Below, in pieces: positions 1,574 through 27,959 of a DNA stretch of 64,000 nucleotides. Each line of letters opens with the position of its first letter. Positions within the stretch are counted from its first letter, which is position 1. The notes below the pieces were generated by a model. The model ran no database searches. It was given only the letters and a program-made list of their open reading frames with translations, and had not been told where the DNA came from. Source of the stretch: Gammaproteobacteria bacterium (GTDB taxonomy: Bacteria > Pseudomonadota > Gammaproteobacteria > Pseudomonadales > IMCC2047); contig JAJFKB010000002.1 in NCBI GenBank assembly GCA_021773395.1, positions 62,001 through 126,000 on the forward strand, read 5' to 3'. Both the position numbers and the translations under genes were made by a program.

Positions 1574-2860
1574 ATGCCTCAGCGATTGACTGCAAGTCTA
1601 ATCAAAAACCTAAAACCTAAACCAAACCGCTTTATCATAACCGATAACAAAACACCTGGTCTTGCTGTAGTGATCAACCCTAACGGTAGCAAATATTTCT
1701 ATTACCGATATCGGCCATCGGGGAGTAAACGGATTATCGAGGAATCGGTCGGAAATGCTTCTGTTCTTTCTGTAGAAGATGCCCGCAAAGCAGTGGCTAT
1801 TAAAGCTGGAGATGTCGCAAAGGGGATCAACCTTAAAGACCAACGAAGAGCTCGTACTTCCATCGCTATAGAAAAAATCTCAGACACAAACCTGCAGCTT
1901 TTTAATTACATCGATAAGTATTATCAGCCTTATGCAAAACAACATAGTGTTAGCGCTGATGAAATCATCAAGACCTTAAAGCGTGAGTTTGTTTTTATTA
2001 AAGGTAAACCTATCAACGATATCAACGCCGGAGATATTGACCAGTGGCGTTCCCTTCGTTGTGAAGATATTACTTATGCTCGGATTAAACGTATTTATAC
2101 CTATTTGAAGTCTTGCATCAATACTGCTCTTAAACACTATAAACTGATCCAAAGCTTTGAACTCCAAAGCTATACGCTCAAACGGAGAATCAATGAAAAA
2201 GTCAATCCACCTAAGGTTCGCTATTTATCTGCCGATGAAGAAATCAGTCTGTTGAAAGCTTTAGGAAGTCGTGACAAATCACTGCGCGAAGCTCGTGCTC
2301 GGTATGTTCAGTGGCAATCAAAGCGCAACCACGGCAAGAAGCACCAAGAACCTTTTGCCGATTCTGATTACCCAGACCACGTAACACCAATCGTTATCAT
2401 TGCATACCATACGGGGTTTGACCTGGGTGATATTTTCGATCTCTATTGGGAACATATCGATTTTCCTAATAATCAAATTCGTAAAATCCGGAATAAAACG
2501 GGACATAAACAGGATAACCCTCAACCGGTAATCATACCCATGTCTCCAAAAGTCAGGAGCATATTTGAACAATGGGGAAAACAACTCGGTATGTCAGGGC
2601 GAATATTTAGAAGCCCGCGGACGGGGGGAAGGCTCAACAATATTAGTAAAGCGTGGAAAAGCGTATTGAAAGAAGCCGGAGTGTCAAATTTCAGATTTAA
2701 AGACTTACGACATACTTTCGGGAGTTGGCTAGCTATTAGCGGTACTGACCTTCTGGAAATTCGTGATCTGATGGGTCATAAGGATATCAAAACAACTCAA
2801 ATTTATGCTCATCTTTGCCCCAAAAAGAAAGCCCAAACCGTGATGCGAGTATTCTCATAG
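1574..2860 (+). CDS. P4-type tyrosine site-specific integrase
   Basis: A 428-residue protein that should recombine the element into and out of tRNA-Asp. Residues 1-95 resemble the arm-DNA-binding domain of P4-type integrases (DUF4102), about 105-205 the core-binding SAM-like domain, and about 225-415 the catalytic domain. Box II is present as D-L-R-H-T-F (Arg379, His380), with Lys instead of His before it. L-M-G-H places a His at 402, and T-Q-I-Y-A-H-L supplies the nucleophile Tyr411. The first catalytic Arg, normally in T-G-x-R-x-G-E, is missing: the codons read T-G-F-D-L-G-D with Asp283. The ORF is otherwise full length with a good AGGAAG ribosome site. The enzyme may be inactive, or a relaxed variant. 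It reads away from the attachment site. Confidence 0.92.
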   Translation: MPQRLTASLIKNLKPKPNRFIITDNKTPGLAVVINPNGSKYFYYRYRPSGSKRIIEESVGNASVLSVEDARKAVAIKAGDVAKGINLKDQRRARTSIAIEKISDTNLQLFNYIDKYYQPYAKQHSVSADEIIKTLKREFVFIKGKPINDINAGDIDQWRSLRCEDITYARIKRIYTYLKSCINTALKHYKLIQSFELQSYTLKRRINEKVNPPKVRYLSADEEISLLKALGSRDKSLREARARYVQWQSKRNHGKKHQEPFADSDYPDHVTPIVIIAYHTGFDLGDIFDLYWEHIDFPNNQIRKIRNKTGHKQDNPQPVIIPMSPKVRSIFEQWGKQLGMSGRIFRSPRTGGRLNNISKAWKSVLKEAGVSNFRFKDLRHTFGSWLAISGTDLLEIRDLMGHKDIKTTQIYAHLCPKKKAQTVMRVFS

Positions 2861-12306: not shown

Positions 12307-13266
12307 TTAGTCACTACCTTCAGGCTCGAAGGTGGAGAAAGCCGCTTCTTGAATAGCCGTGGATACCTTAATTGATTGTTTAACGGTCGCTAAAACCTGG
12401 GCATCGAGGGTTTCTTCACTCAGCAACCTCTGAGCGGTTTCCTCCAATACTGACTGGTTAAGCGACAAAATGTCTTTTGCCAATTGGAACGCATCATTCA
12501 ATAATTGACTCACGGCTGCCGACACCCTTTGCGCCATTTCGGAACCGAAACGCAAGATTGAATCATCGATGGATTGATCTAGAAACTGCGATTTCTGAGA
12601 GTCGATAATGGAAAAGAAGGGCACCCCGGCCTCCCCCGCCACAGCTCGGGCGATCAGGGTTTTGCCAGTACCCGGCGGGCCAACCAGCAATACTCCCTTT
12701 GGAATATGCGCGCCCAGGCGATTGTAATGCCCTGGCTCTTTCAAAAGCTGCACCACCTCCACCAATTTTTCCTTTGCCTCATCCACCCCAGCCACGTCAT
12801 CAAACGTAACACCGGTATCTTTTTCAACTAACACCTTGGCTTTGCTCTTGCCGATATTCATCATGCCGCCCATGCCCTGCTTGTCGGCAAATTTACGGAA
12901 CATCAAAAACCACACCAGAAAAAACACTAACGCCGGAGCGATCCACCCAATTAACGTGGCGTGCGGCCCACCGGAGATAACGCCTTTATAGTCCACGTTA
13001 TAGGGAGCGAGTTTTTCCGCCAGATCAATATCGACCCGAGGCGTAACAAAGTGATCTTTTCCCTCGATCGGCTCCTTGAAGGTGCCGCGAATGGTTTGCT
13101 GATCGACCACCAAATCCTTCAACCAGCCCTGCGCCAGATAGCGTTCAAACTCGCTGTAACTCAGTTGTGCCTGACTGGCGGTGTGTCCCCAAAAACCCTG
13201 GAACAACACAACCCCCCACAACGCCACAAACAGGCAGACCAAGTTCAATTGCTGTTTTTTATTCAT
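12307..13266 (-). CDS. FtsH-like protein with large internal deletion
   Basis: 319 residues where FtsH has about 600-650. Residues 1-220 match the FtsH N-terminus: membrane helix, periplasmic domain, second helix (110-122), linker, [13 protein letters not shown], and Walker A G-P-P-G-T-G-K-T (196-203), ending at V-P-F-F-S-I. At residue 221 the sequence jumps in frame to a segment like the C-terminal M41 peptidase helices (about 235-290). Walker B, the second region of homology and the zinc site HExxH are all gone, so neither ATP hydrolysis nor proteolysis is expected. The frame is intact, so the product could still be made and act as a dominant partner. The gene follows a YHS protein and the remnant of hflK. 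Confidence 0.8.
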
Positions 13267-13275
13267 TGTCTTCCC

Positions 13276-13773
13276 TCAGTGACAACCACCGTCCTTGGTC
13301 AGGTGTGCAAGGTTGCCGAGTTCACACTCCTCGCTGTAATGGATCAGTCCACGCTTTACCTGCTCCACCACACCTTTGCGAAATCCAACTGCAGTTTTCT
13401 CGATGGTTTTTTCAATATCCTCCAGAGAGACTTGAATGAGGTCGTAAGTCACGTACAAGTCCTCATCTTCAAACACAATTGCTTCAACCCCCATCAGCAT
13501 CTGGAGTGATGCGTCCAACTCTGCTTTAAGGCGATCGCTGATAGCGTCGCAAAATCTAATGCGACGCTTCTTTAACACCACCTGGTCTTTCTGCTTGGGT
13601 GACAAGCCATGTTGTGGGTCACCCACAAACAGATGTGGATGAGATTTAAATCGCTCCAGGCACTGAGACGAACAGAAATAATGGTCGACACCCTGATAGT
13701 TCACCAACAGTGATCGGTTGATTTTTGTCATATGACAAACAGGGCAGTGAATCGTGAATTCCAGTTTGCTCAT
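13276..13773 (-). CDS. YHS/TRASH-type metal-binding protein with HMA-like second domain
   Basis: 165 residues. The first 45 have a YHS-like zinc knuckle: C-P-V-C (10-13), then V-x-Y-x-G-x-x-H-Y-F-C-S-S-x-C (Cys34, Cys38) and F-K-S-H-P. Domains of this sort bind copper, zinc or iron. The later part (about 85-130) looks like an HMA ferredoxin fold without the CxxC loop, ending in a Cys/His tail (E-E-C-E...G-G-C-H). The start at 13773 has GGAGGAG upstream; the longer frame to 13806 overlaps the hflK remnant. It resembles the protein at 23024-23368 in its second domain. Function is not established; metal sensing or delivery is plausible. Confidence 0.55.
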   Translation of the reverse strand: MSKLEFTIHCPVCHMTKINRSLLVNYQGVDHYFCSSQCLERFKSHPHLFVGDPQHGLSPKQKDQVVLKKRRIRFCDAISDRLKAELDASLQMLMGVEAIVFEDEDLYVTYDLIQVSLEDIEKTIEKTAVGFRKGVVEQVKRGLIHYSEECELGNLAHLTKDGGCH

Positions 13774-13789
13774 CAAAATCTCCTCCGGG

Positions 13790-14183
13790 TTACTGGCCCA
13801 CGCCATTCAACAACTGGTACAACTCGCTTTCGGTGGCTTTGGCATCGGCCTCACCGGCACCTTCGGAACGAAACCGCTCAGGGATCGGACATCTGTCGCG
13901 TGAACGTGGCACCGGGCGTTCCGAAGCCGAATTCTTCCTTGAGCTGACGTTTCACCGGGACTTGCACCACCCTGTCCACGCCAAAGGGAATTTTCAAATG
14001 CAGGCCGGGATCAACGACGTAATGGTAGTGACCAAAACGTTGTACGACGCCAACTGATTCCGCCGAGACAGTGTAAAAACTGCTGTAGCCCAGGCACACC
14101 GCGAGCACGATGACAATACCCAACGCAATCTGTCGCGGTGAAATGAGTATATCCGGCAAAGGTTGATCAGACTTGCTGTTCAT
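13790..14183 (-). pseudogene. hflK/hflC-like gene with internal deletion and frameshift
   Basis: The frame from 14183 gives 101 residues: a cytoplasmic N-terminus, a membrane helix and the start of an SPFH/band-7 domain (Y-T-V-S-A-E-S-V-G-V-V-Q-R-F-G, then P-G-L-H-L-K-I-P-F-G-V-D). It matches the N-terminus of HflK, which is over 300 residues long. After G-A-T-F the sequence changes and stops at 13878. In another frame 13790-13877 encodes P-E-R-F-R-S-E-G-A-G-E-A and a short tail, the kind of segment found late in SPFH proteins. So the middle of the gene is missing and the two ends are out of frame. HflK normally caps FtsH, whose gene nearby is also internally deleted. Confidence 0.75.
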
Positions 14184-14235: not shown

Positions 14236-14817
14236 CTAGCTGGTGGTGGCGTCGGAACCAATCTCCAACACATCGTTTTCCAGGTACTGATACGGTGGAA
14301 TAATCAGGTTGGTGGGGGCCGGTACGCCCTTGAATACCCGCCCGGCCAGATCAAACTTGGAACCGTGACAGGGGCAGTAAAATAATGCGTGATCAACACC
14401 CGCTATTCCCTCGGGTTTATAGTTCGGCACACAACCCAGGTGCGTACAAATACCTACCACCACAAAGATATCGTCATGGATACTGCGGTAGGCGTTTTTT
14501 GCATAATCCGGCTGCTGATTCATCTCGGAGTCCGCATCCCTGAGCAGGCTCTTGTGGGCAGGCTCTTTAAGTCCTTCAATGTTATCTTTGGTGCGCCGCA
14601 ACACCCAGACCGGTTTGCGCTGCCATTCCACGGTGATAATGGCTCCAGGATCAATTTTCGAGATATCCACCTTAACCGGCGCCCCCGAAGACCTGACTTT
14701 TGCACTGGGAGTCCAGGATTGTACAAAGGGTATCGCCAGGCCCACTGCGCCAGCACCAGCGACAAAGGATGTGGCGACGGTTAAAAATCTGCGTCGATTA
14801 TCATTAAAACTTTTCAT
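14236..14817 (-). CDS. Rieske [2Fe-2S] protein (bc1-type), without other complex III genes
   Basis: 193 residues. A twin-arginine-like N-terminus R-R-R-F-L and a membrane helix (about 12-33) precede the Rieske domain with cluster ligands C124-T-H126-L-G-C129 and C148-P-C-H151-G-S. This is the ubiquinol-cytochrome c reductase iron-sulfur subunit pattern, including both disulphide cysteines. No cytochrome b or c1 gene is in the window. The ATG overlaps the stop of the phosphoketolase gene as ATGA, so it is cotranslated with carbon metabolism genes. It could replace or modify the chromosomal subunit, or feed another oxidoreductase; the partner is unknown. Confidence 0.9.
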   Translation of the reverse strand: MKSFNDNRRRFLTVATSFVAGAGAVGLAIPFVQSWTPSAKVRSSGAPVKVDISKIDPGAIITVEWQRKPVWVLRRTKDNIEGLKEPAHKSLLRDADSEMNQQPDYAKNAYRSIHDDIFVVVGICTHLGCVPNYKPEGIAGVDHALFYCPCHGSKFDLAGRVFKGVPAPTNLIIPPYQYLENDVLEIGSDATTS

Positions 14818-17189
14818 AACTCACTCTTTTTTAGAAGGACTAACTTCCGTATCGCAGCAACTGCTACAGTTTCAAGTTCACAGCCATTGGCCTTAAACAG
14901 CCCGTTGGTGTCCAACGTGCCGCCCTGGTTGGTGTAGCCGAAGGCAATACAGCGCTGCGGTCCCAGATCCAAAGGCCTGCACACACCGAGCAGAGTTTCC
15001 GGCCGCAAATGAGCGACAAACACGCGCAGGGCTATGTTCGAAGGAAACAGCGCTTCTTTAGCTGAAACGCTGCTAACAAAGGCCTGTTCCGATCGATCCC
15101 TGGGCTTACGAAAACGGCCGGGTTCCATCAAATAGGTGACAAAGCTTGAAATACCATTTCCGCTAAGCTCTTGTTGAATCTGGATACAAAGATCGAGCTG
15201 ATAAGCCCCCACCGCTACCAGCTGCACTTCGGCATTGTTGCTCTTCCCCAGGGTTATAGCACCCTGGCTCACCAGTAGCTGCGCCTGTTGTTTGCTAAAA
15301 ATGGTCTTCACCTGTTGTTTCGGTACCGTGAGCGCCCAGATTTGTCCCTGTGTCCGATAACAGGCGTTTAAACAGGCAATGCCGCTATTCGCATCGGCGG
15401 GATATACCACACGCGCTACATCGCTCATTTCACCCATTAAGGCCTCACCAAATAATGAATCCTGGTGTGACTGTTCGTTTTTACCGTTCTCCCAGAGATG
15501 CGATGTAGCGATTACCGGTACCGACAACCACTGAGGGGCACGGCCTAACTCTTTCTGGTGACGTGCAAAAATGATCTCCTGACGGATCGCTCCCAGCATT
15601 TTCACGGCAAAAGCTTCATAGGAAACCACGAGGTTCATTCCGCCTTTATTACCCAGCGCTGCGCTCACTACAGCTTCTTCGTTTAGGGCTGTGATAACAG
15701 AACCCTGAATCGACTCGGCCACGCCATCTTCCTGTTTCAGCACACGGTGTTTCAGCTTATCAAGCGTATGTCCCATACGGTTACTGCGCAATTCATCGGG
15801 ATTGCCAACCCTTACCCTCAATTGAGGATTAGCATGCACTAGAGCAATGAAATGCCTGTCAATCGCTTCCATGGGGGAATATTCGGCACCCACGGTTACC
15901 CATTGAAATGCCGGGATTGGGCTAAGAGAAATATTCCTCCGGCAGAGTGGATGATCCTTCTCCGGCAGCCGGGCATCTTTATCATGCGTGTTTAATTGTG
16001 ATGAGGCCTGCCTGAGCTTTTTTTCAGATACAAATAAACCTGCTACAAACTCATTAAACAAGTCACGGGATGAAAGGTCATACTTAGGATTTTCAGGTAG
16101 CGGCGCACCATGTGCGGCATTGGTTCCCTCACCATAAAAACCATAGCCTTTTATCGTTTCGGCAATCAAGTAAGGTAATTTCACCGGATAACTCATATGG
16201 CCAGCCTGAACCTGTGCGCTGCAGGCCTGCAAACGGGCTTCGGATTCAAAAATTCCCCAAATAAACGCCGACGGATCCCTGCCATCAATGGCGATCGGAT
16301 AGAACCCATTCAGTTGCAGGTGCTGAAAAAACCATTCCAAACCACCTTGTTGATACATGATGGAACGCTGGTCTATACGACGGCCATTAGCGATCATTAC
16401 CGGCGTCACCAGACCACAGTCCTCCGCTCGCCACCAGCGGCTGGCCCAGTCGCTGCCGCGTTGTTCTTCGAACGCGCCATCGCTGAGAAACGCCACCAGA
16501 TGTTCACCCGGCAGCGGCATATGCACATACTGCAATTCGGCGAAACCCAGATACCCACCTTCAATCAGGCCACCAGCGGTATGCGGGTTAACGTGACTAC
16601 CCAGTGGAACACCAAGACGACCATCATCCGCAATCGCATAGCTGTAAAAATCCCGCACCAACTGCGTCAGCCCCTCTTCATTCAATGGATAGCGTTCTGC
16701 CTGTTCCGGATAAAGATTTTGCAACAACACATTGACCGCATCGATGGCTGCCACACAGTGCCCCTGCCCCATCAACCAGCTGCGGGTTTTACCGGCCAAC
16801 GTATTGGCAACCATATAGCCGACATAGGCAGGCACCATATTCAGGGAACCGCCCGTATGCCCTTGGGGGTTAGTTTTAAAAGCTGATGCCTCGAGAGCAC
16901 TGCCGCTGAAATCCACTTTGTTGCTGTAGGTCATATGCACCACCAACCACATCGCCGCGCTCGCCATGCGGTCGGCGGCATGCAATACGTCCAGGACTTC
17001 GTCTATCTGTTTAAACCGCCCCGTACAAAGGAGTTGCTGGCAAAGATCGAACACTCTTACCTGCGTTTCATCCCGGTGTTGGATCGCACCATAACCCTTC
17101 GCCCAGCGCGCAAAGGCGGGATAGGTATCACGATATAACCTTGCCCTCTGTTGTGTCCGATGATCGTTTTGTTGATCTATGGCATACAT
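14814..17189 (-). CDS. Phosphoketolase-family thiamine diphosphate enzyme, divergent
   Basis: 791 residues, the length of phosphoketolases, which cleave xylulose 5-phosphate or fructose 6-phosphate with phosphate to acetyl phosphate and an aldose phosphate. Family features: H-T-G-G-S-L-N, N-P-H-T-A-G-G-L-I-E-G-G-Y-L-G, and a diphosphate motif D-G-A-F-E-E-Q-R-G followed about 25 residues on by A-N-G. Several canonical motifs differ: the usual G-H-G-G-P-G is M-G-Q-G-H-C and G-D-G-E-A-E-T-G begins S-D-G. It therefore belongs to a divergent branch, and reaction or substrate may have shifted. Ten bases after acetate kinase, the usual partner that turns acetyl phosphate plus ADP into ATP, which supports phosphoketolase activity. 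Confidence 0.82.
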   Translation of the reverse strand: MYAIDQQNDHRTQQRARLYRDTYPAFARWAKGYGAIQHRDETQVRVFDLCQQLLCTGRFKQIDEVLDVLHAADRMASAAMWLVVHMTYSNKVDFSGSALEASAFKTNPQGHTGGSLNMVPAYVGYMVANTLAGKTRSWLMGQGHCVAAIDAVNVLLQNLYPEQAERYPLNEEGLTQLVRDFYSYAIADDGRLGVPLGSHVNPHTAGGLIEGGYLGFAELQYVHMPLPGEHLVAFLSDGAFEEQRGSDWASRWWRAEDCGLVTPVMIANGRRIDQRSIMYQQGGLEWFFQHLQLNGFYPIAIDGRDPSAFIWGIFESEARLQACSAQVQAGHMSYPVKLPYLIAETIKGYGFYGEGTNAAHGAPLPENPKYDLSSRDLFNEFVAGLFVSEKKLRQASSQLNTHDKDARLPEKDHPLCRRNISLSPIPAFQWVTVGAEYSPMEAIDRHFIALVHANPQLRVRVGNPDELRSNRMGHTLDKLKHRVLKQEDGVAESIQGSVITALNEEAVVSAALGNKGGMNLVVSYEAFAVKMLGAIRQEIIFARHQKELGRAPQWLSVPVIATSHLWENGKNEQSHQDSLFGEALMGEMSDVARVVYPADANSGIACLNACYRTQGQIWALTVPKQQVKTIFSKQQAQLLVSQGAITLGKSNNAEVQLVAVGAYQLDLCIQIQQELSGNGISSFVTYLMEPGRFRKPRDRSEQAFVSSVSAKEALFPSNIALRVFVAHLRPETLLGVCRPLDLGPQRCIAFGYTNQGGTLDTNGLFKANGCELETVAVAAIRKLVLLKKSEL

Positions 17190-17198
17190 GGTAACTCC

Positions 17199-18353
17199 TC
17201 ACTCAGCCACTAGCTGAAATTCATGATCAAAAGGAAAGTGATGGTGTACGGAGTGCAACATGGACGCCGCCTCATCAGCCGCCACTACCCAACACTGCAC
17301 CCGCGATGCCGGTCGCGATAGAATTAGCGGTAAAGCTGAACATGTAAGAGGCTCTTCTAACGTAATTCCTAAATGGGAAAGACTGCACAACAAGCGACAG
17401 CAAATATCGACATTGTTTTCCGCAATACCACCGCTAAGAATGACACCATCCAGCCCGCCTAGAATGGCGAAATAGGCTCCCAGCGTTTTCTGTAACCGAT
17501 AACGGAAAAGATCAAACGCCAGTTGGTGTTGCAGCTGGTCACTCGCAAACAAATCCGCCATGTTATCGATACCGCCAGACAGACCCCACCAGCCGGATTC
17601 GTGATTTAAAACATGATCAGCCTCTTGTGGGGACCAGCCCTCTTGCCGCTGCAACCAAGTCAGCAATCCAGGATCGATATCGCCACTGCGTGTACGCATA
17701 AGCAACCCTTCATTGGGGGTAAATCCCATCGTAGTATCGACCGGCTTGCCATCACGAATGGCGGCCATAGAACAGCCACTGCCCAGTTGCGCAGTTACCA
17801 AGGTGTAGTGTTCGACTTCGGGATTCAGAGTTTCCCACTGCTTTACCATCGACTCATGAGCAAAACCATGAAACCCGTAACGGCGTAAACCGTGCTTTTC
17901 AACAAGTGCCGCGGACAAGCCATAGGTTTGAGTGACTTTTGGTAAATCAGCAAAAAAATCCGTATCGAAAACGGCAATGACGGATAAAGGCGAAGGGGCG
18001 CTTCGACATTGCTCGATAAGATCAATTGCCAACTTGTTATGCAAGGGTGCCAGCGAAACCAAGCTTTTCAATGCTTGAAAATTATCATCGTTGATCATTA
18101 ACGGTTCGGCGTGGCTGAGCCCACCATGTACGACCCTGATGATCACCGCGCGGACATCTTGATTAGCCAGAACATTCTTCAACAAAGCAGCCATGCTCGC
18201 ACTAAGCTGATTGGATGACCGATCACCATCAATAGTACCTGTTGAAACAGCGGTTTCTATTTTTATTACACTGTGTACCGCCCACTTAATACTGGAACTA
18301 CCCGGGTTCAGCACTAGAAAAACAGGCTGTGTAGATCGTTGACTTAGCATCAT
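17199..18353 (-). CDS. ackA: Acetate kinase
   Basis: About 384 residues of the ASKHA kinase fold: N-P-G-S-S-S-I-K-W at the start, R-V-V-H-G-G, R-Y-G-F-H-G-F-A-H, Q-L-G-S-G-C-S-M-A-A-I, D-T-T-M-G-F-T-P-N-E-G-L-L-M-R-T-R-S-G-D-I-D-P, and L-S-G-G-I-A-E-N. It transfers the phosphate of acetyl phosphate to ADP. The canonical L-G-N-G and F-H-G-T-S-H are L-G-S-G and F-H-G-F-A-H, small changes in the active-site region. The start at 18353 is chosen because the family begins there; the longer frame runs back into the DUF5676 gene. It sits 10 bases before the phosphoketolase gene in the same operon. Confidence 0.92.
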   Translation of the reverse strand: MMLSQRSTQPVFLVLNPGSSSIKWAVHSVIKIETAVSTGTIDGDRSSNQLSASMAALLKNVLANQDVRAVIIRVVHGGLSHAEPLMINDDNFQALKSLVSLAPLHNKLAIDLIEQCRSAPSPLSVIAVFDTDFFADLPKVTQTYGLSAALVEKHGLRRYGFHGFAHESMVKQWETLNPEVEHYTLVTAQLGSGCSMAAIRDGKPVDTTMGFTPNEGLLMRTRSGDIDPGLLTWLQRQEGWSPQEADHVLNHESGWWGLSGGIDNMADLFASDQLQHQLAFDLFRYRLQKTLGAYFAILGGLDGVILSGGIAENNVDICCRLLCSLSHLGITLEEPLTCSALPLILSRPASRVQCWVVAADEAASMLHSVHHHFPFDHEFQLVAE

Positions 18354-18378
18354 GATAACTCGCGAACCAATAGATTGG

Positions 18379-18642
18379 TCACGACAATTGCTGCATGCGG
18401 TTGTAAATAGACGCCAACAGCCAGCCAGCAAAACCAGTCACAATGAACCAAGCCACCAGTCCTTTTATAACTCCTGCGAGAGTCATATGCCAACCCATAT
18501 CGTCGAGTTGCATATGAAGCATATCGCCTGACATGGACAACATCATGACTGGCATTACCATGACAAACACACTGCAAATCAACCAAAGTGTTGCCGCTGT
18601 GATGGCGCTGGCTATTCCGAATTTGAAAGCGTTAAGTATCAT
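18379..18642 (-). CDS. DUF5676-like small membrane protein
   Basis: 87 residues with two membrane helices (about 10-35 and 55-80) joined by a Met/His-containing loop (M-L-H-M-Q-L-D-D-M-G-W-H-M). It matches the DUF5676 family of small membrane proteins found in metal and stress islands. The methionine and histidine content suggests contact with soft metals, but no function is known. It lies between the helical protein gene and acetate kinase with short gaps and is part of the long minus-strand operon. Confidence 0.65.
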   Translation of the reverse strand: MILNAFKFGIASAITAATLWLICSVFVMVMPVMMLSMSGDMLHMQLDDMGWHMTLAGVIKGLVAWFIVTGFAGWLLASIYNRMQQLS

Positions 18643-18690
18643 CGTTATTTCTCCTTTATGTGGTGGTATGTCTTTGTAAATTGGATTGTT

Positions 18691-19149
18691 CTATATATCC
18701 TCAAAACGATTGGCCGACTGAGCCATACGCATCATTTCGTGCTCTTCCAGCGACCGGAGTGATTCCATCAACTCTTTGGCAGAGGGGATATCCGCCCTGG
18801 AGGCGAGATAGCGATACAGTTCAATCACCTGCTGGTGTTGATCGACTATCACCTCCATGATTTGCGTGGCATCCAACTCCGCAAAGGGCGCGTCGCAATG
18901 CGCATGCCGAACGATGGGGTGCTTTGCCACATATTCGTAACACCAGGTGTTCAGTGCATGCTCGTCGCCTGAGGTTTCAAACCCGCTGACTACCTTGGTC
19001 AATGCCTTCTCGTGATCGGACAGATACCCAAGGATCATCCGCGCCCGTTCACTCGTATTCTTGTCCGCGCAATGGGATAAACACTGGCTGAGGTGTTGGT
19101 GGAATTCCCGGGTCCAGTGCAGCACATCTTTTAAGGTTTCAATTTGCAT
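18691..19149 (-). CDS. Helical protein of unknown function (ferritin-like or hemerythrin-like bundle)
   Basis: 152 residues predicted almost entirely helical, with spaced His, Glu and Asp residues (E-F-H-Q-H, D-H-E-K-A, D-Q-H-Q-Q-V-I-E-L, E-E-H-E-M-M-R-M) suggestive of a four-helix bundle that could hold a di-iron centre. Cysteines occur at C-L-S-H-C and H-A-H-C. No signal peptide or membrane segment. I do not recognise the family. The gene is 33 bases after the beta-CASP hydrolase gene and 48 before DUF5676, in the same operon. Confidence 0.6.
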   Translation of the reverse strand: MQIETLKDVLHWTREFHQHLSQCLSHCADKNTSERARMILGYLSDHEKALTKVVSGFETSGDEHALNTWCYEYVAKHPIVRHAHCDAPFAELDATQIMEVIVDQHQQVIELYRYLASRADIPSAKELMESLRSLEEHEMMRMAQSANRFEDI

Positions 19150-19182
19150 ATCTTTTTTCTCCGTTGTGGATTGACACTTCGA

Positions 19183-20538
19183 TTACAGGTGCAAAATATC
19201 GCGATAACCCGCTACGCCTATGGTGAATTTTGTCTGTTCCTGCAAATGCACACGCAGGCTTTCAAGTGCTTCTGGATCGCCGTGAATCAATTGAATTCGG
19301 GTGGTATCGGTCAGTGCCGACTGTTGTAACCACTGCGTGAGTTCAAGGTAATCTCCATGGCCTGACAAACCCGATATCACGTCAACCGAAGCGCGCACAA
19401 GTATCCATTGCCCATGAATTTTCACCGCATCGACACCTTCCAGCATTTTTGCGCCGCGAGTACCACCTGCCTGATAACCGGTAAATAACACCGTGTTTTT
19501 AGAACGGCCTAACAGGCGTTTAAAGTGGTGGAGAATACGCCCACCAGTAGCCATACCACTGCCAGCGATAACAATATGAGGGTAAGCCTGACCGGCGATT
19601 GCCTTCGATTCATCTACCGTACGGGTATAGGTCACGCCATCGCACATGCGGTAGCATTGATCGTGGTTCAAGCGGTGCTGGTCACTAAACTGGCAAAAAA
19701 TGTCCGATACTTTGATGGCCATAGGGCTGTCGAGATAGATAGGCATTTTGGGGATTTCGCCCTTCTCCATTAAACTCACCAACAGATGCTGCAAGGCCTG
19801 CGCCCGTCCTACCGCAAAGGCCGGAACCAGCAACACGCCTCCACTTTTGGCGACACGGTTAACAATTGCCGCCAATTGCTGGAATGGGCCATGGGTGTCG
19901 TGCCGGCGGTTGCCGTAGGTGGACTCCATAAGCAACAGATCCAGTTCCGGCAATGGCCGAGGGGGGTTCATCAGCACGTCATCGAAGCGACCGACATCGC
20001 CAGAAAAACCGATGCGCTTCCCTTCCGCTTCCACTATAATGCTGGCGGCGCCAAGAATATGCCCGGCGGGCTGTAGATAAAAACGGATATCCCCCACTTC
20101 GATCTGGTCATCAAAATCCACGGACTGAAACAACTTCATGCTGGCTTCCGCGGTTTGACGGTCGTAAAGTGGCTCGGGATGTTGGTGTTTGCCCAGTTTG
20201 TGTTTACTGTAATACTTGGTGTCTTCCTCCTGAATATGGCCACTGTCGGCCAACAAAATCTGACACAAGGCTTTAGTGGCGTGATGGGTAAACACCGGAC
20301 CACGAAAACCTCCCTTGTACAGCACCGGGATGTAACCGGAGTGATCCAGATGCGCATGGGTGAGCAGTACGGCATCCAGCCTGCCGATGTCCAGGGGCAA
20401 GGTTTGCCAGTTGCGTTCCCGCAGCCACTTGTACCCCTGAAACAAACCACAATCGACCAACACGCGTGTACTGTCAGTTTCCAGCAAAAACTTAGAGCCA
20501 GTAACGGTTTCTGTACCGCCAATAAAGGTAATTCTCAT
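19183..20538 (-). CDS. Metallo-beta-lactamase / beta-CASP hydrolase (RNA-processing type)
   Basis: 451 residues. The N-terminal fold carries the zinc motif T-H-A-H-L-D-H-S-G (about 60), a second His in A-G-H-I-L-G-A and Asp in F-S-G-D-V-G. The beta-CASP insertion has E-S-T-Y-G-N-R, P-A-F-A-V-G-R-A-Q and G-S-G-M-A-T-G-G-R, and the C-terminus S-G-H-G-D and I-H-G-D. This is the family of CPSF73-like and bacterial RNA hydrolases, often called MBL-fold RNA metallo-hydrolases. It overlaps the PRPP synthetase gene by 4 bases, so it is produced together with the nucleotide enzymes. It might supply nucleotides by degrading RNA; that link is inference. Confidence 0.9.
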   Translation of the reverse strand: MRITFIGGTETVTGSKFLLETDSTRVLVDCGLFQGYKWLRERNWQTLPLDIGRLDAVLLTHAHLDHSGYIPVLYKGGFRGPVFTHHATKALCQILLADSGHIQEEDTKYYSKHKLGKHQHPEPLYDRQTAEASMKLFQSVDFDDQIEVGDIRFYLQPAGHILGAASIIVEAEGKRIGFSGDVGRFDDVLMNPPRPLPELDLLLMESTYGNRRHDTHGPFQQLAAIVNRVAKSGGVLLVPAFAVGRAQALQHLLVSLMEKGEIPKMPIYLDSPMAIKVSDIFCQFSDQHRLNHDQCYRMCDGVTYTRTVDESKAIAGQAYPHIVIAGSGMATGGRILHHFKRLLGRSKNTVLFTGYQAGGTRGAKMLEGVDAVKIHGQWILVRASVDVISGLSGHGDYLELTQWLQQSALTDTTRIQLIHGDPEALESLRVHLQEQTKFTIGVAGYRDILHL

Positions 20539-21461
20539 AATGATTTTCCTGGCAATTTCAGCATGCTGATAATGGGAGCAATCAGCTGCGACGTGATATC
20601 GATAGCATTGGAAGAATGGGGGATGGTATTGGACGTGACCAGTTGGCTCAGGCCTGAGTCAAGTAAGGTTCTATCGCAGTGATCGGCAAATATGCCGTGT
20701 ACCGCCACACACTGAATCTTGTCGATTCCTTTGGACTGAAGTGTTCTAACACATTCCAAAATCGTCTGCCCACTGGAGATTACGTCGTCGATAATCACTG
20801 CCGTTCTATCCCTGAATTCGTTGATGTCGGGCAGCATCACTTCGACTTGGCGATCCCCGAAGCGCTGTTTTTCTCCAATCACAAAAGGATGTTGACTAAA
20901 GGCAGCAATCTCAGAAACCCATTGCTCGCTTTCGCTGTCCGGCCCAACCAACAGTAGGTTGCTTTGCGTTTTGAGCCAGTGCGCCAATGCCGGAGCCCCT
21001 TGCACAACACGACTGGGTATGGAATAGATTTCATCCAAGGAATGATAGCGATGCAAATGTGGATCGACCGTGACCAGCCAATCAGCATGTTGAGAAAGGC
21101 ACTTGGCAAAAATACGTGAAGTAACCGCTTCCCCATCGACAAAACGGCGATCCTGACGCATATAACTGAGGTAAGGCGCCGCTAACCCCACTTGCGTTGC
21201 TCCCAGCTCCCGCAGTGTTTCCAATAAAAACAACAACGGTAGATATTTGGTGTTTGGGTGTGACAGGTCAGCCACCACAATACAGGCGCGATTTTCTACA
21301 GCAGAATGAATACGCAGATAGGACTCCCCATCGGGAAACCTTCGGGCATTGAAGTCGCCTCGCTGACCACCAATCGCAGTAGCGAGAGATTCAACCAACG
21401 GATGATTGTGCAGGGAAAATATCAGCGGAGATTTATCGTTCACAGCCGTCGCTTCGCTCAT
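20535..21461 (-). CDS. prs: Ribose-phosphate pyrophosphokinase (PRPP synthetase)-like
   Basis: 308 residues with two phosphoribosyltransferase-like halves. Motifs include R-F-P-D-G-E-S-Y near the start, P-Y-L-S-Y-M-R-Q-D-R-R-F (ATP site), D-P-H-L-H-R, and the PRPP-binding loop D-D-V-I-S-S-G-Q-T-I. The form resembles archaeal or short bacterial PRPP synthetases. The normal reaction joins ribose 5-phosphate and ATP to give PRPP and AMP. In this operon, directly overlapping a nucleoside/AMP phosphorylase-like gene, it could also run in the direction that recovers ribose 5-phosphate. It is overlapped by 4 bases on both sides, which argues for coordinated translation. Confidence 0.88.
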   Translation of the reverse strand: MSEATAVNDKSPLIFSLHNHPLVESLATAIGGQRGDFNARRFPDGESYLRIHSAVENRACIVVADLSHPNTKYLPLLFLLETLRELGATQVGLAAPYLSYMRQDRRFVDGEAVTSRIFAKCLSQHADWLVTVDPHLHRYHSLDEIYSIPSRVVQGAPALAHWLKTQSNLLLVGPDSESEQWVSEIAAFSQHPFVIGEKQRFGDRQVEVMLPDINEFRDRTAVIIDDVISSGQTILECVRTLQSKGIDKIQCVAVHGIFADHCDRTLLDSGLSQLVTSNTIPHSSNAIDITSQLIAPIISMLKLPGKSL

Positions 21462-22963
21462 TGCGCCTCCTCGATAGTAAAAATCATCGATTGACGATAA
21501 AACTCCATCGCGTATTGTTGCTCTCCGATCGTATCGGAATAGAGGGTAAATAAAGACTGTCCAGCCTCAATCTTTTCGCCGACACTTGTATGAAGACGCA
21601 TCCCCGCAGCCTCTGTCGCCGGAGCGCCTGCCAGCTTCGCCAAGCGCGCGAGTTGACGATTATCGATAGCGGTAAGTGTGCCCGCAGTTGTGGCCGCTTC
21701 GGTATGTTGGTAGCTGGGGTCAGGCAGGGCTTTCATCCCACCCTGTGCAGCCAAAATGTGCTGAAACTGCTGCCAGGCTTTACCTTCATCCAAAATTGCG
21801 ATTGCTCTTTCCAACCCTTGTTCATAACGCTCTGAATAAGCGAGTGAAAATAGATGTGCCGCTAAAAATAAAGCGCGCTCTCGTAAATCCTGTGGCGCAT
21901 TGTGCTCGCATTGCAATACCGCCAACACATCGCGCGCTTCTTCTACCGGGCCGATACCTCGTCCCACCGGTTGACTACCATCCGTAATGAGGCAGCGAAT
22001 TTGAATACCACAGGCAGCCCCCACTTGGGTAAAAAGTGAAGAGAGTCGCTCGGCATCTTTTTGCGAGCGCACCTTAGCTGTGGAGCCGACGGGAATATCA
22101 ATCACCGCATGAGTGGAACCGGCGGCGATTTTTTTGGATAGCACTGAGGCGATCAACTGTCCTTCGCCGTCTAAGTCCAGGGCCCGTTCAATGCGAATCA
22201 ACAAATCATCAGCTGGACTCAGATTCACCGCCCCGCCCCAGACGAGACAGGCATGGGTTTGTGCTACAACACGTTGAATGTCGGTAATTTCCAGATTGAC
22301 GGTAGTCAGTGCTTCCATGGTATCCGCAGTACCCGCCGGAGAGGTGATTGCTCGCGACGAGGTTTTGGGAATCGTCAGTCCCGCCGCGCTGACTATGGAA
22401 ACCACCAAAGGCGTGGTGCGGTTGCCCGGCAATCCTCCAATGCAATGTTTATCGAGAACTTTTGTTTGATCCGCCCATTTCAATCGTTTACCGCACGCTA
22501 CCATGGCCTTAGTGAGCCCGATGATTTCATCCACGTCCAAGCGACTGCCTGCACATACGCTAAGAAAACTCGCGATTTCGATATCTGAATAGCGATGGGC
22601 GCTGATGTCCTCGACGATATCGGCAATCTCCTGATCACTGAGTTTATGACCGTAAATTTTTTTACGTACTGCGCTTAATGACCCCACAACCTGTGCATGG
22701 CTGACACTTACCGACTCGCCATCCTTAATATCTAGACGTTGCTGCGTAATCTTGGACAACCCGATTTGTCCCACTAATAGCTTATCGTTTCTAACCACAT
22801 TAAGCGTCGCAATCAACTGCTCAGTTCTGGTGCTGATTGACAAGCGCGTGTTCGCGTTAAAGCCCTCTGCGCGGCAGATATGGCAGTCCTCCTGCATATA
22901 CACAACAGGCTCCTGATGGGTGTCAATGCCCATCGCCACCGCTTGTAGAATATGTCTGCTCAC
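21458..22963 (-). CDS. Thymidine phosphorylase family, AMP phosphorylase-like (TIGR02645-type)
   Basis: 501 residues, longer than DeoA (about 440) because of an N-terminal domain with D-C-H-I-C-R-A-E-G-F. The core carries the phosphate-binding K-H-C-I-G-G-L-P-G-N-R-T-T and S-S-R-A-I-T-S-P-A-G-T-A-D-T-M-E. These are the hallmarks of the archaeal-type group (TIGR02645), which includes AMP phosphorylase: nucleoside monophosphate plus phosphate gives base plus ribose 1,5-bisphosphate. Bacterial members are often annotated as putative thymidine phosphorylase, so the true substrate is uncertain. It leads the TP-PRPP synthetase-MBL overlapped trio. No RuBisCO or ribose bisphosphate isomerase is seen in the window. 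Confidence 0.87.
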   Translation of the reverse strand: MSRHILQAVAMGIDTHQEPVVYMQEDCHICRAEGFNANTRLSISTRTEQLIATLNVVRNDKLLVGQIGLSKITQQRLDIKDGESVSVSHAQVVGSLSAVRKKIYGHKLSDQEIADIVEDISAHRYSDIEIASFLSVCAGSRLDVDEIIGLTKAMVACGKRLKWADQTKVLDKHCIGGLPGNRTTPLVVSIVSAAGLTIPKTSSRAITSPAGTADTMEALTTVNLEITDIQRVVAQTHACLVWGGAVNLSPADDLLIRIERALDLDGEGQLIASVLSKKIAAGSTHAVIDIPVGSTAKVRSQKDAERLSSLFTQVGAACGIQIRCLITDGSQPVGRGIGPVEEARDVLAVLQCEHNAPQDLRERALFLAAHLFSLAYSERYEQGLERAIAILDEGKAWQQFQHILAAQGGMKALPDPSYQHTEAATTAGTLTAIDNRQLARLAKLAGAPATEAAGMRLHTSVGEKIEAGQSLFTLYSDTIGEQQYAMEFYRQSMIFTIEEAQ

Positions 22964-25652: not shown

Positions 25653-27959
25653 CTAATGTTCCTGCGCTTTAAAAAAGCGCAAACGATTGGCATTGCTGAC
25701 CACGGTGAGCGATGAAAAGGCCATCGCCGCGCCGGCAATGACAGGACTGAGTAATAAGCCAAAGAACGGGTATAAAACACCGGCCGCAAACGGCACCCCG
25801 GCAACGTTATAGATAAAAGCGCCAAACAGATTTTGTTTGATATTGCGCAATGTTGCTTTACTAACGGCAATGGCATCGGCCAGGCCATGCAGTGAACCGC
25901 GCATCAGCGTAATATCGGCGCTCTCGATGGCGACGTCCGTGCCCGTACCAATGGCAAAACCGACATTCGCCAGGGCCAGGGCCGGTGCATCGTTAATGCC
26001 GTCCCCGGTCATACCGACGATTTCATTTTGCATTTGCAGCTCGGCGACTTTTTCGGCTTTTTGTTCCGGGAGAACTTCGGCAAAGAACTCGCTGATCCCG
26101 ACTTTATCCGCCACCGCTTTTGCCGTAGCGCGGTTATCCCCGGTCAGCATCACCACGCGTATGCCATTTTTTTGCAAGCGTTTAATCGCTGAAATGGAGT
26201 CGTTCTTGATCGGGTCGGCAACGGCAATAATCGCCGCCAACTTCCCATCCGCGGCGAAATACATGGGTGTTTTGGCTTCCTCCGCCATTTTTTGTGCGAC
26301 ATCCACGTAATCGTCCACGGAGATATTTTTATCGCGCATCAGCTTTTCATTACCGAACAGCAACTGCTGCTCACCGACAAAACCCTCTACGCCATGTCCT
26401 GCGATGGCGGAAAACTGTTCGACTTTATCGAGCGATAGATCGCGTTCGGTTGCGGACTCCACGATAGAAACCGCCAAGGGGTGTTCGGAACCAGCTTCCA
26501 GGCTCGCAGCCAGACGCAATACGTCTTCTTCGCTCTCAGCATGCGCGAGATGAATATTGGTGACTTTGGGTGAACCCAGCGTAATGGTTCCGGTTTTATC
26601 CAGAATCATGGCGGTGATTTTTGAAGAGGTCTGCAAGGCCTCGCCATTGCGAATCAGCACCCCAGCCTCAGCCGCTTTACCTACACCGACCATCACCGAC
26701 ATGGGCGTTGCCAACCCCAGAGCACAGGGGCAAGCAATAATTAATACGGTGGTGGCGGAAACGATAGCAAAGGCTATCGCCGGATCGGGGCCGAGGTTCA
26801 GCCAGGTCAGGGCGCTGACCACGGCGATAATCATCACCACCGGAACGAAATAAGCCGAGATCGCATCCGCCAGACGGCCAATCGGCGGTTTGGAATTCTG
26901 CGCACGTTTGACCATGCCAATGATTTGCGCCAGAGCCGTGTCTTTACCCACTCGCGTGGCCTTAAAGACGATGGAGCCAGTTTTGTTAATGGTGCCGCCG
27001 ACCACCTCATCATCCTGCTTTTTCTCAACCGGCATCGGCTCACCGGTCAGCATGGATTCGTCAACCGAGGTATGGCCGTCCAGCACCACGCCATCGACCG
27101 GTATTCTTTCGCCCGGCCGCACCCGCACCTTGTCGTTCAACAGCACCTGCTCGATCAGAATATCGATCTCTTTGTCATCGCGAATGACCCGCGCGGTTTT
27201 CGCCTGCAAACCGATCAAGCGCTTGATCGCTTCGGAGGTTCTGCCGCGCGCTTTTATTTCCAAAGCCAGTCCCAGATCGATCAGACCGATGATCATGGCG
27301 GTTGCTTCAAAATACACATGACGCGCCATCTCCGGCACGGCATAAGGAAAAAACACCACTACCATGGAATAAAGCCAGGCGGTGCCGGTACCCAAAGCGA
27401 TCAAAGTATCCATATTTGCACTGTGATTCGTGAAAGACTTCCAGGCACCGACAAAAAAGTGTTTGCCTGAAAAGAGCATCACGCCCAGAGTGAGTAGTCC
27501 GATAACCAGCCAAACCACTCGCTCCGTATTGGAGGTCACTGTCATTTCCCCAACAATGACGCTATAGGCCATCAATGGAATGCCAAGGGTTAAGGCGATG
27601 GTCATTTCTCTCATTAAACGCTTGTAGTAGGCCCAGTCCGCCTGCTCCTTTTCATCTAATGAATCCTGCTCCGATCCGTCCTCCTGCACTTTCGCGTTGT
27701 AACCGGCCTTTTCCACCGCTTTAATCAGATCACCCGAATTCACAGAGCCCAAGACTGTGGCTGTTCGTTGTGCAAAATTCACTTCAGCCTTTTCAACGCC
27801 AGACACATTGTTTAAGGCGGCCTCTATTTTTCCGACGCAGCTGGCGCAGCTTGCTCCTTCAATGATTAACTCCTGACTCGCGGAATTCGCTGACGGTTGC
27901 TCGCCGTCCTGATGGCATTTGGCATGACCAGCCTGCTGATCCGGTGTGATTTGATTCAT
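25653..27959 (-). CDS. copA: Copper-translocating P-type ATPase
   Basis: 768 residues. One N-terminal HMA domain with G-A-S-C-A-S-C (Cys38, Cys41), eight membrane helices, an actuator T-G-E-P, the ion motif C-P-C-A-L-G in helix 6, the phosphorylated D-K-T-G-T, and [10 protein letters not shown]. The pair N-V-A-G-V-P and [12 protein letters not shown] in the last helices is the Cu(I) signature (N-Y-x(n)-M-S-S class). It exports Cu(I), possibly Ag(I), from the cytoplasm. A His-containing leader (residues 1-28) precedes the HMA domain. It follows its MerR-type regulator by 36 bases. Confidence 0.95.

What the first reader, a model, noticed from the sequence alone, without database searches (positions are those of the whole stretch)
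14236..22963. Possible nucleotide-to-ATP scavenging operon
A phosphorylase of the AMP/thymidine type, PRPP synthetase and a beta-CASP hydrolase overlap by 4 bases each, followed by acetate kinase, phosphoketolase and a Rieske protein. RNA or nucleotide breakdown could feed pentose phosphate into acetyl phosphate and then ATP, without respiration. I know of no described pathway joining these on a mobile element.
Basis: inference. Interest (0 to 1): 0.72.

Follow-up and report, generated by a model that had tools for sequence, protein, structure and literature searches.

The report
Mobile nucleotide-to-acetate energy operon
A transferable DNA element carries a compact set of enzymes that may let a bacterium break down its own nucleotides and turn the sugar part into acetate and ATP when respiration fails; the same set recurs on plasmids of several kinds of bacteria, often near metal-resistance genes, and I found no paper that describes it as a pathway.

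Summary
Observation confirmed. The set recurs: 14 of 15 plasmids with this phosphoketolase clade carry TP2, 12 within 5 kb, against 115 of 72,556 plasmids. In 96 genomes (host included) TP2 and PRS are together in 22, each alone in one. Published B. diazoefficiens tables list TP2-PRS-MBL and phosphoketolase-kinase as two predicted operons with FixK2 boxes and FixK2-dependent expression at low oxygen. I propose it handles ribose-1,5-bisphosphate, the missing link. The energy reading is partly supported: no activity, transcript or flux data exist for this locus, the PRS reaction is inference, and Rieske is an occasional neighbour.

The parts
21458..22963 (-). TP2: NMP/AMP-phosphorylase-type protein (annotated thymidine phosphorylase family), 501 aa
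   Evidence: NF003338 647.8 bits, TIGR02645 573 (cutoff 434.6), TIGR03327 AMP_phos 476.1 (below cutoff 535), PRK05820 thymidine phosphorylase 199.9 (below 269); best PDB match 4ga5, E 2.9e-98
20535..21461 (-). PRS: PRPP-synthetase-like protein of the TP2-linked clade, 308 aa; DPHLHR and GPDxESxQW motifs
   Evidence: NF005537 356.8 bits; motifs; overlaps TP2 by 4 bases
19183..20538 (-). MBL: beta-CASP metallo-hydrolase, RNase TTHA0252-like, 451 aa
   Evidence: Beta-Casp, Lactamase_B and RMMBL domains; PDB 2dkf E 2.3e-72; motifs conserved in 32 dereplicated homologues
18691..19149 (-). Conserved 152-aa protein of unknown function (H152)
   Evidence: no Pfam or NCBIfam match; 44-97% identical in 12 relatives aligned
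18379..18642 (-). DUF5676-type two-TM protein, 87 aa
   Evidence: ORF; clusters with the L052 protein that matches PF18926; not scanned itself
17199..18353 (-). Acetate/propionate family kinase, 384 aa from the ATG at 18353
   Evidence: PF00871 272.1 bits; TIGR00016 263.4, below its cutoff 293.4; start; conserved kinase motifs
14814..17189 (-). PKL: phosphoketolase of a divergent clade, 791 aa
   Evidence: PF03894 143 bits; catalytic residues kept, pocket positions 321 and 548 changed
14236..14817 (-). Rieske iron-sulphur protein, PetA type, 193 aa (occasional neighbour)
   Evidence: TIGR01416 222 bits; in 6 of 30 groups
13878..14183 (-). HflK remnant, 101 aa (four relatives have a 326-aa HflK plus an HflC-like gene here)
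   Evidence: TIGR01933 40 bits; compare L026, L028, L030, L051
12307..13266 (-). FtsH with an internal deletion, 319 aa (628 aa in the same four relatives)
   Evidence: FtsH_ext and start of AAA, then only the end of M41
25653..27959 (-). Heavy-metal P-type ATPase upstream, a frequent neighbour of the set
   Evidence: named from annotated relatives; 15 of 30 groups
1574..2860 (+). Tyrosine integrase of the mobile element
   Evidence: PF00589 73.8 bits
50435..59701 (-). F-type conjugation genes (TraG_N, TraU, TraC)
   Evidence: PF07916, PF06834, PF11130

Best explanation
A mobile emergency-energy module. The beta-CASP RNase releases nucleotides from RNA; TP2 splits nucleoside 5'-monophosphates with phosphate into base and ribose-1,5-bisphosphate; the TP2-linked PRS-like enzyme returns this to ribose-5-phosphate (possibly by phosphoryl transfer to a nucleotide); host isomerase and epimerase make xylulose-5-phosphate; phosphoketolase cleaves it with phosphate to acetyl phosphate and glyceraldehyde-3-phosphate; acetate kinase makes ATP and acetate. 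From general knowledge of these families, none of the five enzymes needs oxygen, a membrane potential or an Fe-S cluster, which would fit their place beside metal efflux and, in another species, in a low-oxygen regulon. Shown: gene content, recurrence, kept catalytic residues. Published for another species: low-oxygen, FixK2-dependent expression of genes of the same names. Inferred: substrates, the PRS reaction, flux direction, physiological role.
For: Linkage: 14 of 15 PKL plasmids carry TP2 against 115 of 72,556, P 4e-39; in 53 loci with at least 8.5 kb on both sides (30 groups) TP2 is present in 20 groups, PRS 21, MBL 18, acetate kinase 12, TP2+PRS+MBL in 16. The TP2-PRS pair also sits near phosphoketolases of the canonical side (43-60% identical to the host's canonical enzyme, 20-22% to PKL): Legionella fallonii, Criblamydia (with acetate kinase, glgP and an ATP-cone protein), Shinella HZN7, Sphingobium xenophagum, so a phosphoketolase of either clade can partner it. 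TP2 is nearest AMP phosphorylase. PKL catalytic residues intact. B. diazoefficiens tables: phosphorylase, PRS, MBL and phosphoketolase raised at 0.5% O2; phosphorylase, MBL, phosphoketolase and acetate kinase lowered in a fixK2 mutant; a phosphoketolase in a predicted FixK regulon. No RuBisCO and no clear DeoB in the host, so another exit from the phosphorylase product is needed; the host has a canonical PRS as well. Analogous archaeal nucleoside-to-acetate route (PMC12628685, passages).
Against: No activity, transcript or flux data for this locus. 7 of 53 full loci have none of TP2, PRS, MBL or acetate kinase and 5 of 15 PKL genes in the 96 genomes lack TP2 within 10 kb, so PKL can occur without the set. 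19 of 29 TP2 genes lack PKL within 10 kb. PRS may simply make PRPP. PKL pocket changes could mean another substrate. No FNR/FixK-type box upstream of the window's TP2. An R15P-isomerase-like protein exists elsewhere in the host (153.6 bits, cutoff 314.1). In B. diazoefficiens the genes are not raised in soybean bacteroids and are marked as outside the earlier direct FixK2 regulon in one table, though a later table gives FixK2 boxes; those genes were matched by name only, their sequences were not compared here.
Confidence: 0.5

Rival explanations
1. Nucleotide homeostasis module: the RNase, TP2 and PRS recycle damaged RNA and rebalance nucleotides, with PRS making PRPP so that bases are re-salvaged; phosphoketolase and acetate kinase are separate cargo sharing the low-oxygen or metal-stress regulation.
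For: TP2-PRS is the tighter unit (23 of 29 TP2 genes have PRS within 6 kb, 10 of 29 have PKL within 10 kb); PRS keeps the flexible-loop K/R and the DDxxSSGxT loop of PRPP synthases; TP2-PRS-MBL lies beside copper genes with no phosphoketolase in the 14.8 kb shown in Sphingobium TKS.
Against: PRS lost the usual pyrophosphate-loop sequence across the TP2-linked set (8 of 8 more checked) and the host has a canonical PRS; phosphoketolases of two separate clades are found with TP2-PRS.
Confidence: 0.25
2. Sugar-fermentation bypass: phosphoketolase plus acetate kinase convert host sugar phosphates to acetyl phosphate when copper or low oxygen disables Fe-S dehydratases and respiration; nucleotides are not the carbon source.
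For: On a Methylophaga plasmid canonical phosphoketolase and acetate kinase lie with glgP, pgm, pgi and transketolase; glycogen phosphorylase also in the Criblamydia set; GAPDH type II and P-type ATPase neighbours; some PKL loci lack the nucleotide genes.
Against: Does not explain why TP2 sits within 5 kb of PKL on 12 of 15 plasmids.
Confidence: 0.18
3. Passive accumulation: metal-resistance islands gather unrelated stress genes, so the neighbourhood carries no pathway meaning.
For: The island also holds lipid, protease and efflux genes; hflK and ftsH in this copy are broken.
Against: Near-perfect TP2-PRS co-occurrence (22 both, 1, 1, 72 neither of 96) and FixK2-dependent expression of both unlinked loci in another species.
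Confidence: 0.07

Closest known systems
Archaeal pentose bisphosphate pathway / NMP shunt (AMP phosphorylase, R15P isomerase, form III RuBisCO)
   Same: Starts with a phosphorylase of the same family; takes nucleotide or nucleoside ribose to central metabolism, and in T. kodakarensis to acetate and alanine (PMC12628685, PMC9700705, passages)
   Different: No RuBisCO in the host; R15P isomerase match below cutoff and unlinked; a PRS-like gene and phosphoketolase/acetate kinase stand in the set instead; bacterial and on a mobile element
Phosphoketolase pathway (XFP + acetate kinase)
   Same: Catalytic residues and frequent pairing with acetate kinase
   Different: Separate clade, median 21% aligned identity to 17 canonical enzymes; positions 321 and 548 changed; linked to nucleotide genes
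Microoxia/FixK2 genes bll3117-3115 and bll2518-2517 of Bradyrhizobium diazoefficiens
   Same: Same enzyme names, low-oxygen expression (PMC6515984, PMC9104804, table passages)
   Different: Two separate predicted operons; not treated as one pathway in the passages found; sequences and phosphoketolase clade not checked here
PRPP synthetase (ribose-phosphate diphosphokinase)
   Same: Family models over cutoff; FPDGE and RQD regions, flexible-loop K/R, DDxxSSGxT loop
   Different: DPHLHR and GPDxESxQW where the host canonical enzyme has DLHADQIQGFF and SPDVGGVVRA

Membership tests
NMP/AMP phosphorylase family | Curated model score: ARCH_P_rylase TIGR02645 / NF003338 | tested here: met
   573 (cutoff 434.6) and 647.8 (cutoff 434)
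NMP/AMP phosphorylase family | AMP phosphorylase equivalog TIGR03327 cutoff | tested here: not met
   476.1 against 535; hence not filed as AMP phosphorylase proper
NMP/AMP phosphorylase family | PGNxT and SSRAITSxAGTAD motifs shared with T. kodakarensis AMP phosphorylase | tested here: met
   alignment to 4ga5; conserved in 47 dereplicated homologues
NMP/AMP phosphorylase family | Phosphorolysis of NMPs | not testable with these tools
   needs enzyme assay
Phosphoketolase | XFP Pfam domains over gathering cutoff | tested here: met
   PF03894 143 (22), PF09364 47.8 (23.7); no match to a C-terminal XFP domain was listed
Phosphoketolase | Active-site residues of BbPK (His64, His97, His142, Gly155, His320, Ser440, Glu479, Tyr501, Asn549, His553; from the list in PMC10547157) | tested here: met
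   all present in window; 52-54 of 54 clade members each
Phosphoketolase | Pocket residues Gln321 and His548 of the same list | tested here: not met
   Q and H in 17 of 17 canonical and in L160, L161, L164; window G and K; clade N or G 52 of 54, K 53 of 54
Phosphoketolase | Pocket residue Gln546 of the same list | tested here: inconclusive
   window N, clade N 53 of 54, canonical Q 17 of 17, but two canonical-side enzymes that my filter had dropped, L160 and L161, also have N, so it does not separate the clades
Phosphoketolase | NCBIfam PRK05261 subfamily cutoffs | tested here: not met
   best 119.7 against 962; supports a separate clade
Phosphoketolase | Acetyl phosphate formation from xylulose-5-P or fructose-6-P | not testable with these tools
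   needs assay
PRPP synthetase | NF005537 and TIGR01251 cutoffs | tested here: met
   356.8 (322); 183.6 (113)
PRPP synthetase | Canonical pyrophosphate-loop sequence (PDxGGxxRA; its role is recalled) | tested here: not met
   GPDxESxQW conserved in the 44 dereplicated homologues and in 8 of 8 plasmid genes checked; host canonical enzyme has SPDVGGVVRA
Archaeal NMP shunt | RuBisCO large subunit | tested here: not met
   0 matches in the host genome, listed as 98.89% complete
Archaeal NMP shunt | Ribose-1,5-bisphosphate isomerase | tested here: inconclusive
   one unlinked homologue, 153.6 bits, cutoff 314.1
Acetate kinase | Pfam acetokinase domain and kinase motifs | tested here: met
   272.1 bits, cutoff 22; but TIGR00016 is below its cutoff, 263.4 against 293.4
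Integrative conjugative element | Integrase plus conjugation genes | tested here: met
Integrative conjugative element | Relaxase and att sites | not tested
   not searched

The most novel reading that the evidence does not exclude
The TP2-linked PRS clade is a new enzyme that converts ribose-1,5-bisphosphate to ribose-5-phosphate (perhaps charging a nucleotide), giving bacteria a RuBisCO-free NMP shunt; coupled to phosphoketolase and acetate kinase it forms a horizontally moving RNA-to-acetate ATP pathway for anoxia and metal stress.
Probability: 0.27. Interest if true: 0.87.

Novelty: new variant of a known kind. Interest (0 to 1): 0.63.

Why it matters
If true, bacteria carry, and trade on plasmids, a way to consume their own RNA as an emergency fuel without respiration. 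It would give functions to a widespread phosphorylase named after thymidine phosphorylase, to a PRPP-synthetase-like clade tied to it, and to a phosphoketolase clade that public annotation often calls xylulose 5-phosphate 3-epimerase. It would also suggest why metal-resistance islands carry central-metabolism genes.

Tried and rejected
Considered and rejected or weakened: (1) RuBisCO-type NMP shunt: no RuBisCO in the host. (2) TP2 as ordinary nucleoside phosphorylase followed by phosphopentomutase: the only strong PF01676 hit is about 497 codons long, GpmI-sized by my recall, so no clear DeoB. (3) Island PRS as the housekeeping enzyme: the host has a canonical one. (4) PKL as an epimerase, as RefSeq often names it: phosphoketolase catalytic residues are intact; 12 papers hold that enzyme name, and I saw only their listing. 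(5) beta-CASP with canonical phosphoketolase as a general pair: 1 of 14 canonical genes in the 96 genomes has the hydrolase within 10 kb on the same contig, read by eye; some of these contigs are short. (6) FNR/FixK control of the window operon: no box in the 250 bases upstream of TP2; the near-box upstream of PRS lies inside TP2 coding sequence. Upstream of PKL, 9 of 91 loci (8 groups) have a box against 1.7 expected from mononucleotide shuffles. (7) Promoter and terminator scans: no signal above shuffles. (8) Rieske as a pathway step: 6 of 30 groups. (9) Gln546 as a clade mark: my motif filter had dropped canonical enzymes with Asn there; one search showed two, so only positions 321 and 548 are claimed. 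The position called R442 (recalled) varies in the clade: Arg in 37 of 54.

Limits: ORFs in scripts were called greedily without a gene finder, so neighbour counts are lower bounds; the 93 PKL loci include short 5-kb loci. Co-occurrence used fixed thresholds; 10 TP2 rows below the family cutoff were dropped, one of them a split fragment beside PRS in G048. The 80 loci are the best of 536 confirmed relatives. Of 22 loci tried for canonical phosphoketolases 17 gave a sequence; three of the other five were checked by gene coordinates, two (L157, L158) were not. Plasmid lists show 40 of 166, 60 of 115, 60 of 103 and 60 of 213 records. Active-site numbering comes from passages of PMC10547157; K300, R442 and K605, the roles of acetate kinase and PRPP synthetase motifs, and the FNR consensus are recalled. 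Paper searches cover only the open-licence library, and of the papers listed I read passages of six (concern seven ids, PMC6435721 being unused here). Structure prediction of PKL and the 152-aa protein was not obtained.
Full report
What is there. The reported genes are real, open and in the stated order on the minus strand. TP2, PRS and the beta-CASP hydrolase overlap by 4 bases each, as do PKL and Rieske. Gaps through the set are -4, -4, 33, 48, 25, 9 and -4 bases. Two small genes were missed: a conserved 152-aa protein without family and a DUF5676-type protein. Downstream lie an HflK remnant and an FtsH with an internal deletion; the four relatives checked have a 326-aa HflK, an HflC-like gene and a 628-aa FtsH there. 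The element has a tyrosine integrase and F-type conjugation genes; its other cargo includes two RND systems, one with a CusF domain, a heavy-metal P-type ATPase with MerR, and cis/trans isomerase, phospholipase D-like and isoprenylcysteine methyltransferase genes (some named from annotated relatives).

Is it more than chance. A scan of species genomes with PKL found 536 relatives, 80 kept. Of the loci held at that point, 93 (window included) carry PKL, 55 groups at 90% identity; neighbours are PRS in 29 groups, TP2 28, MBL 25, P-type ATPase 24, acetate kinase 19 (many of these loci are short). In the 53 loci with 8.5 kb or more on both sides (30 groups): PRS 21, TP2 20, MBL 18, ATPase 15, acetate kinase 12, Rieske 6; TP2+PRS+MBL 16 groups, with acetate kinase 7; 7 loci have none of the four. 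On plasmids, 14 of 15 PKL-clade records carry TP2 (12 within 5 kb) against 115 of 72,556. In 96 genomes (host and relatives) TP2 and PRS are both present in 22, one alone in 1 and 1, neither in 72 (P 2e-19); PKL and TP2 10, 4, 13, 69 (P 5.6e-5); 23 of 29 TP2 genes have PRS within 6 kb; 10 of 15 PKL genes have TP2 within 10 kb. Gene order varies between loci, which argues for selection to keep the genes together rather than for recent common descent alone (inference).

What the enzymes are. TP2 scores far above the classical thymidine phosphorylase models and is nearest archaeal AMP phosphorylase, but below that equivalog's cutoff; its best solved relative is 4ga5. PKL has a median of 21% aligned identity with 17 canonical phosphoketolases and forms its own clade; ten active-site positions of the published list are conserved in 52-54 of 54. 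Two pocket positions set the clade apart: Gln321, kept in 17 of 17 canonical enzymes plus three more checked, is Asn or Gly in 52 of 54; His548, likewise kept in 20 of 20, is Lys in 53 of 54. Gln546 is Asn in 53 of 54, but also in two canonical-side enzymes, so it does not count. One relative, G047/L016, has lost several catalytic residues. In BbPK a Q321A change raised efficiency on dihydroxyacetone (PMC10547157, passages), so this position bears on substrate. PRS belongs to a clade that keeps flexible-loop Lys/Arg and the DDxxSSGxT loop but has DPHLHR and GPDxESxQW where the host canonical enzyme has DLHADQIQGFF and SPDVGGVVRA; 8 of 8 plasmid PRS genes checked beside TP2 have GPDxESxQW, 7 of 8 DPHLHR. 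The host has that canonical PRS elsewhere. The beta-CASP protein is closest to RNase TTHA0252.

Evidence for a role. The TP2-PRS pair occurs with canonical-side phosphoketolases too (clade checked): MBL-TP2-PRS-phosphoketolase beside a copper ATPase in Legionella fallonii; phosphoketolase-glgP-ATP-cone-MBL-TP2-PRS-acetate kinase in Criblamydia; phosphoketolase-PRS-MBL-TP2 in Shinella HZN7; Sphingobium xenophagum, TP2-PRS some 8 kb from the phosphoketolase and no MBL annotated between 232,000 and the phosphoketolase. Either of two clades as partner suggests that the phosphoketolase reaction itself is needed. In B. diazoefficiens bll3117, bll3116, bll3115 (TP2, PRS, MBL) and bll2518 (phosphoketolase) are raised at 0.5% O2 in protein (log2 2.1, 4.4, 2.9; 4.3) and transcript (5.1, 7.7, 15.4; 8.2-fold); the same table shows no change in soybean bacteroids and no mark as direct FixK2 targets (PMC6515984, table passages). 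A later table has bll3117, bll3115, bll2518 and the kinase bll2517 lowered 6.6-, 30.6-, 10.0- and 10.2-fold in a fixK2 deletion, with FixK2 boxes before both predicted operons (PMC9104804, table passage). Searches inside these two papers for nucleotide metabolism, acetyl phosphate and fermentation, and in the first also substrate-level, found nothing. A third paper discusses bll2517 with pta as an ATP-forming acetate route (PMC10888616, passages). A phosphoketolase is in a predicted FixK regulon (PMC2908626, passages). The identity of these genes with ours rests on names.

How it most likely works. RNA to NMPs (beta-CASP); NMP + phosphate to base + R15P (TP2); R15P to R5P (PRS-like, inferred); R5P to Xu5P (host); Xu5P + phosphate to acetyl phosphate + G3P (phosphoketolase); acetyl phosphate + ADP to acetate + ATP (acetate kinase). 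The R15P step is the weak point. The host lacks RuBisCO, has no clear DeoB and has one unlinked, sub-cutoff R15P-isomerase-like protein beside panP. The near-obligate TP2-PRS pairing and the changed PRS loop make PRS the best candidate, but ordinary PRPP synthesis is not excluded. The host's own canonical phosphoketolase lies with a beta-CASP hydrolase and a TIGR00730 protein, a family that by my recall includes NMP phosphoribohydrolases (weak matches to the LOG and PpnN models): suggestive, but this hydrolase pairing is 1 of 14 canonical genes in the 96 genomes.

Against. No assay or transcript for this locus; PKL and TP2-PRS each also occur without the other; no FNR-type box before the window operon; Rieske does not belong to the core.

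Known or new. No paper found treats these enzymes as one pathway (open-licence library only; mostly listings seen, passages of those named above). It works like a union of the archaeal NMP shunt and the phosphoketolase pathway but fails the shunt's RuBisCO criterion, so it is filed as a new variant of a known kind.

Noticed in passing
window 12307-14183: HflK is reduced to 101 aa, HflC is absent and FtsH has an internal deletion (319 aa against 628 aa in four relatives); natural decay or an assembly artefact of this draft genome cannot be told apart.
   Followed up: partly
G000:C13 (L139 1539-15081): Host has a second cluster: long acetate-kinase-like frame, P-type ATPase, symporter-like protein, canonical phosphoketolase, phosphate-transporter-like protein, beta-CASP hydrolase and a TIGR00730 protein (transporters named by eye).
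   Followed up: partly
L025 (Methylophaga thalassica plasmid): Plasmid glycogen-to-acetate set: isoamylase, pgm, pgi, transketolase, glgP, acetate kinase, canonical phosphoketolase, with ppk2, cis/trans isomerase and efflux genes; a TP2-PRS-MBL locus with split acetate kinase pieces lies elsewhere on the plasmid (L167).
   Followed up: no
L016 (G047): A PKL-clade member next to TP2-PRS has lost the equivalents of His64, His97, His320, Tyr501 and His553: a possible pseudoenzyme with kept partners.
   Followed up: no
L165, L166: An ATP-cone domain protein precedes MBL-TP2-PRS in Pontibacter and Criblamydia plasmids, suggesting adenylate sensing.
   Followed up: no
public plasmid annotation: 14 of the 15 PKL-clade plasmid genes are named 'xylulose 5-phosphate 3-epimerase' and one phosphoketolase; sequence evidence favours phosphoketolase.
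   Followed up: yes
L141 8693-9643: eIF2B/R15P-isomerase-like protein beside panP in the host genome, below the cutoffs of all eight NCBIfam models it matched.
   Followed up: partly
window 18691-19149: 152-aa protein with invariant His and Cys residues and no Pfam or NCBIfam match; travels with the operon in 9 locus groups.
   Followed up: partly
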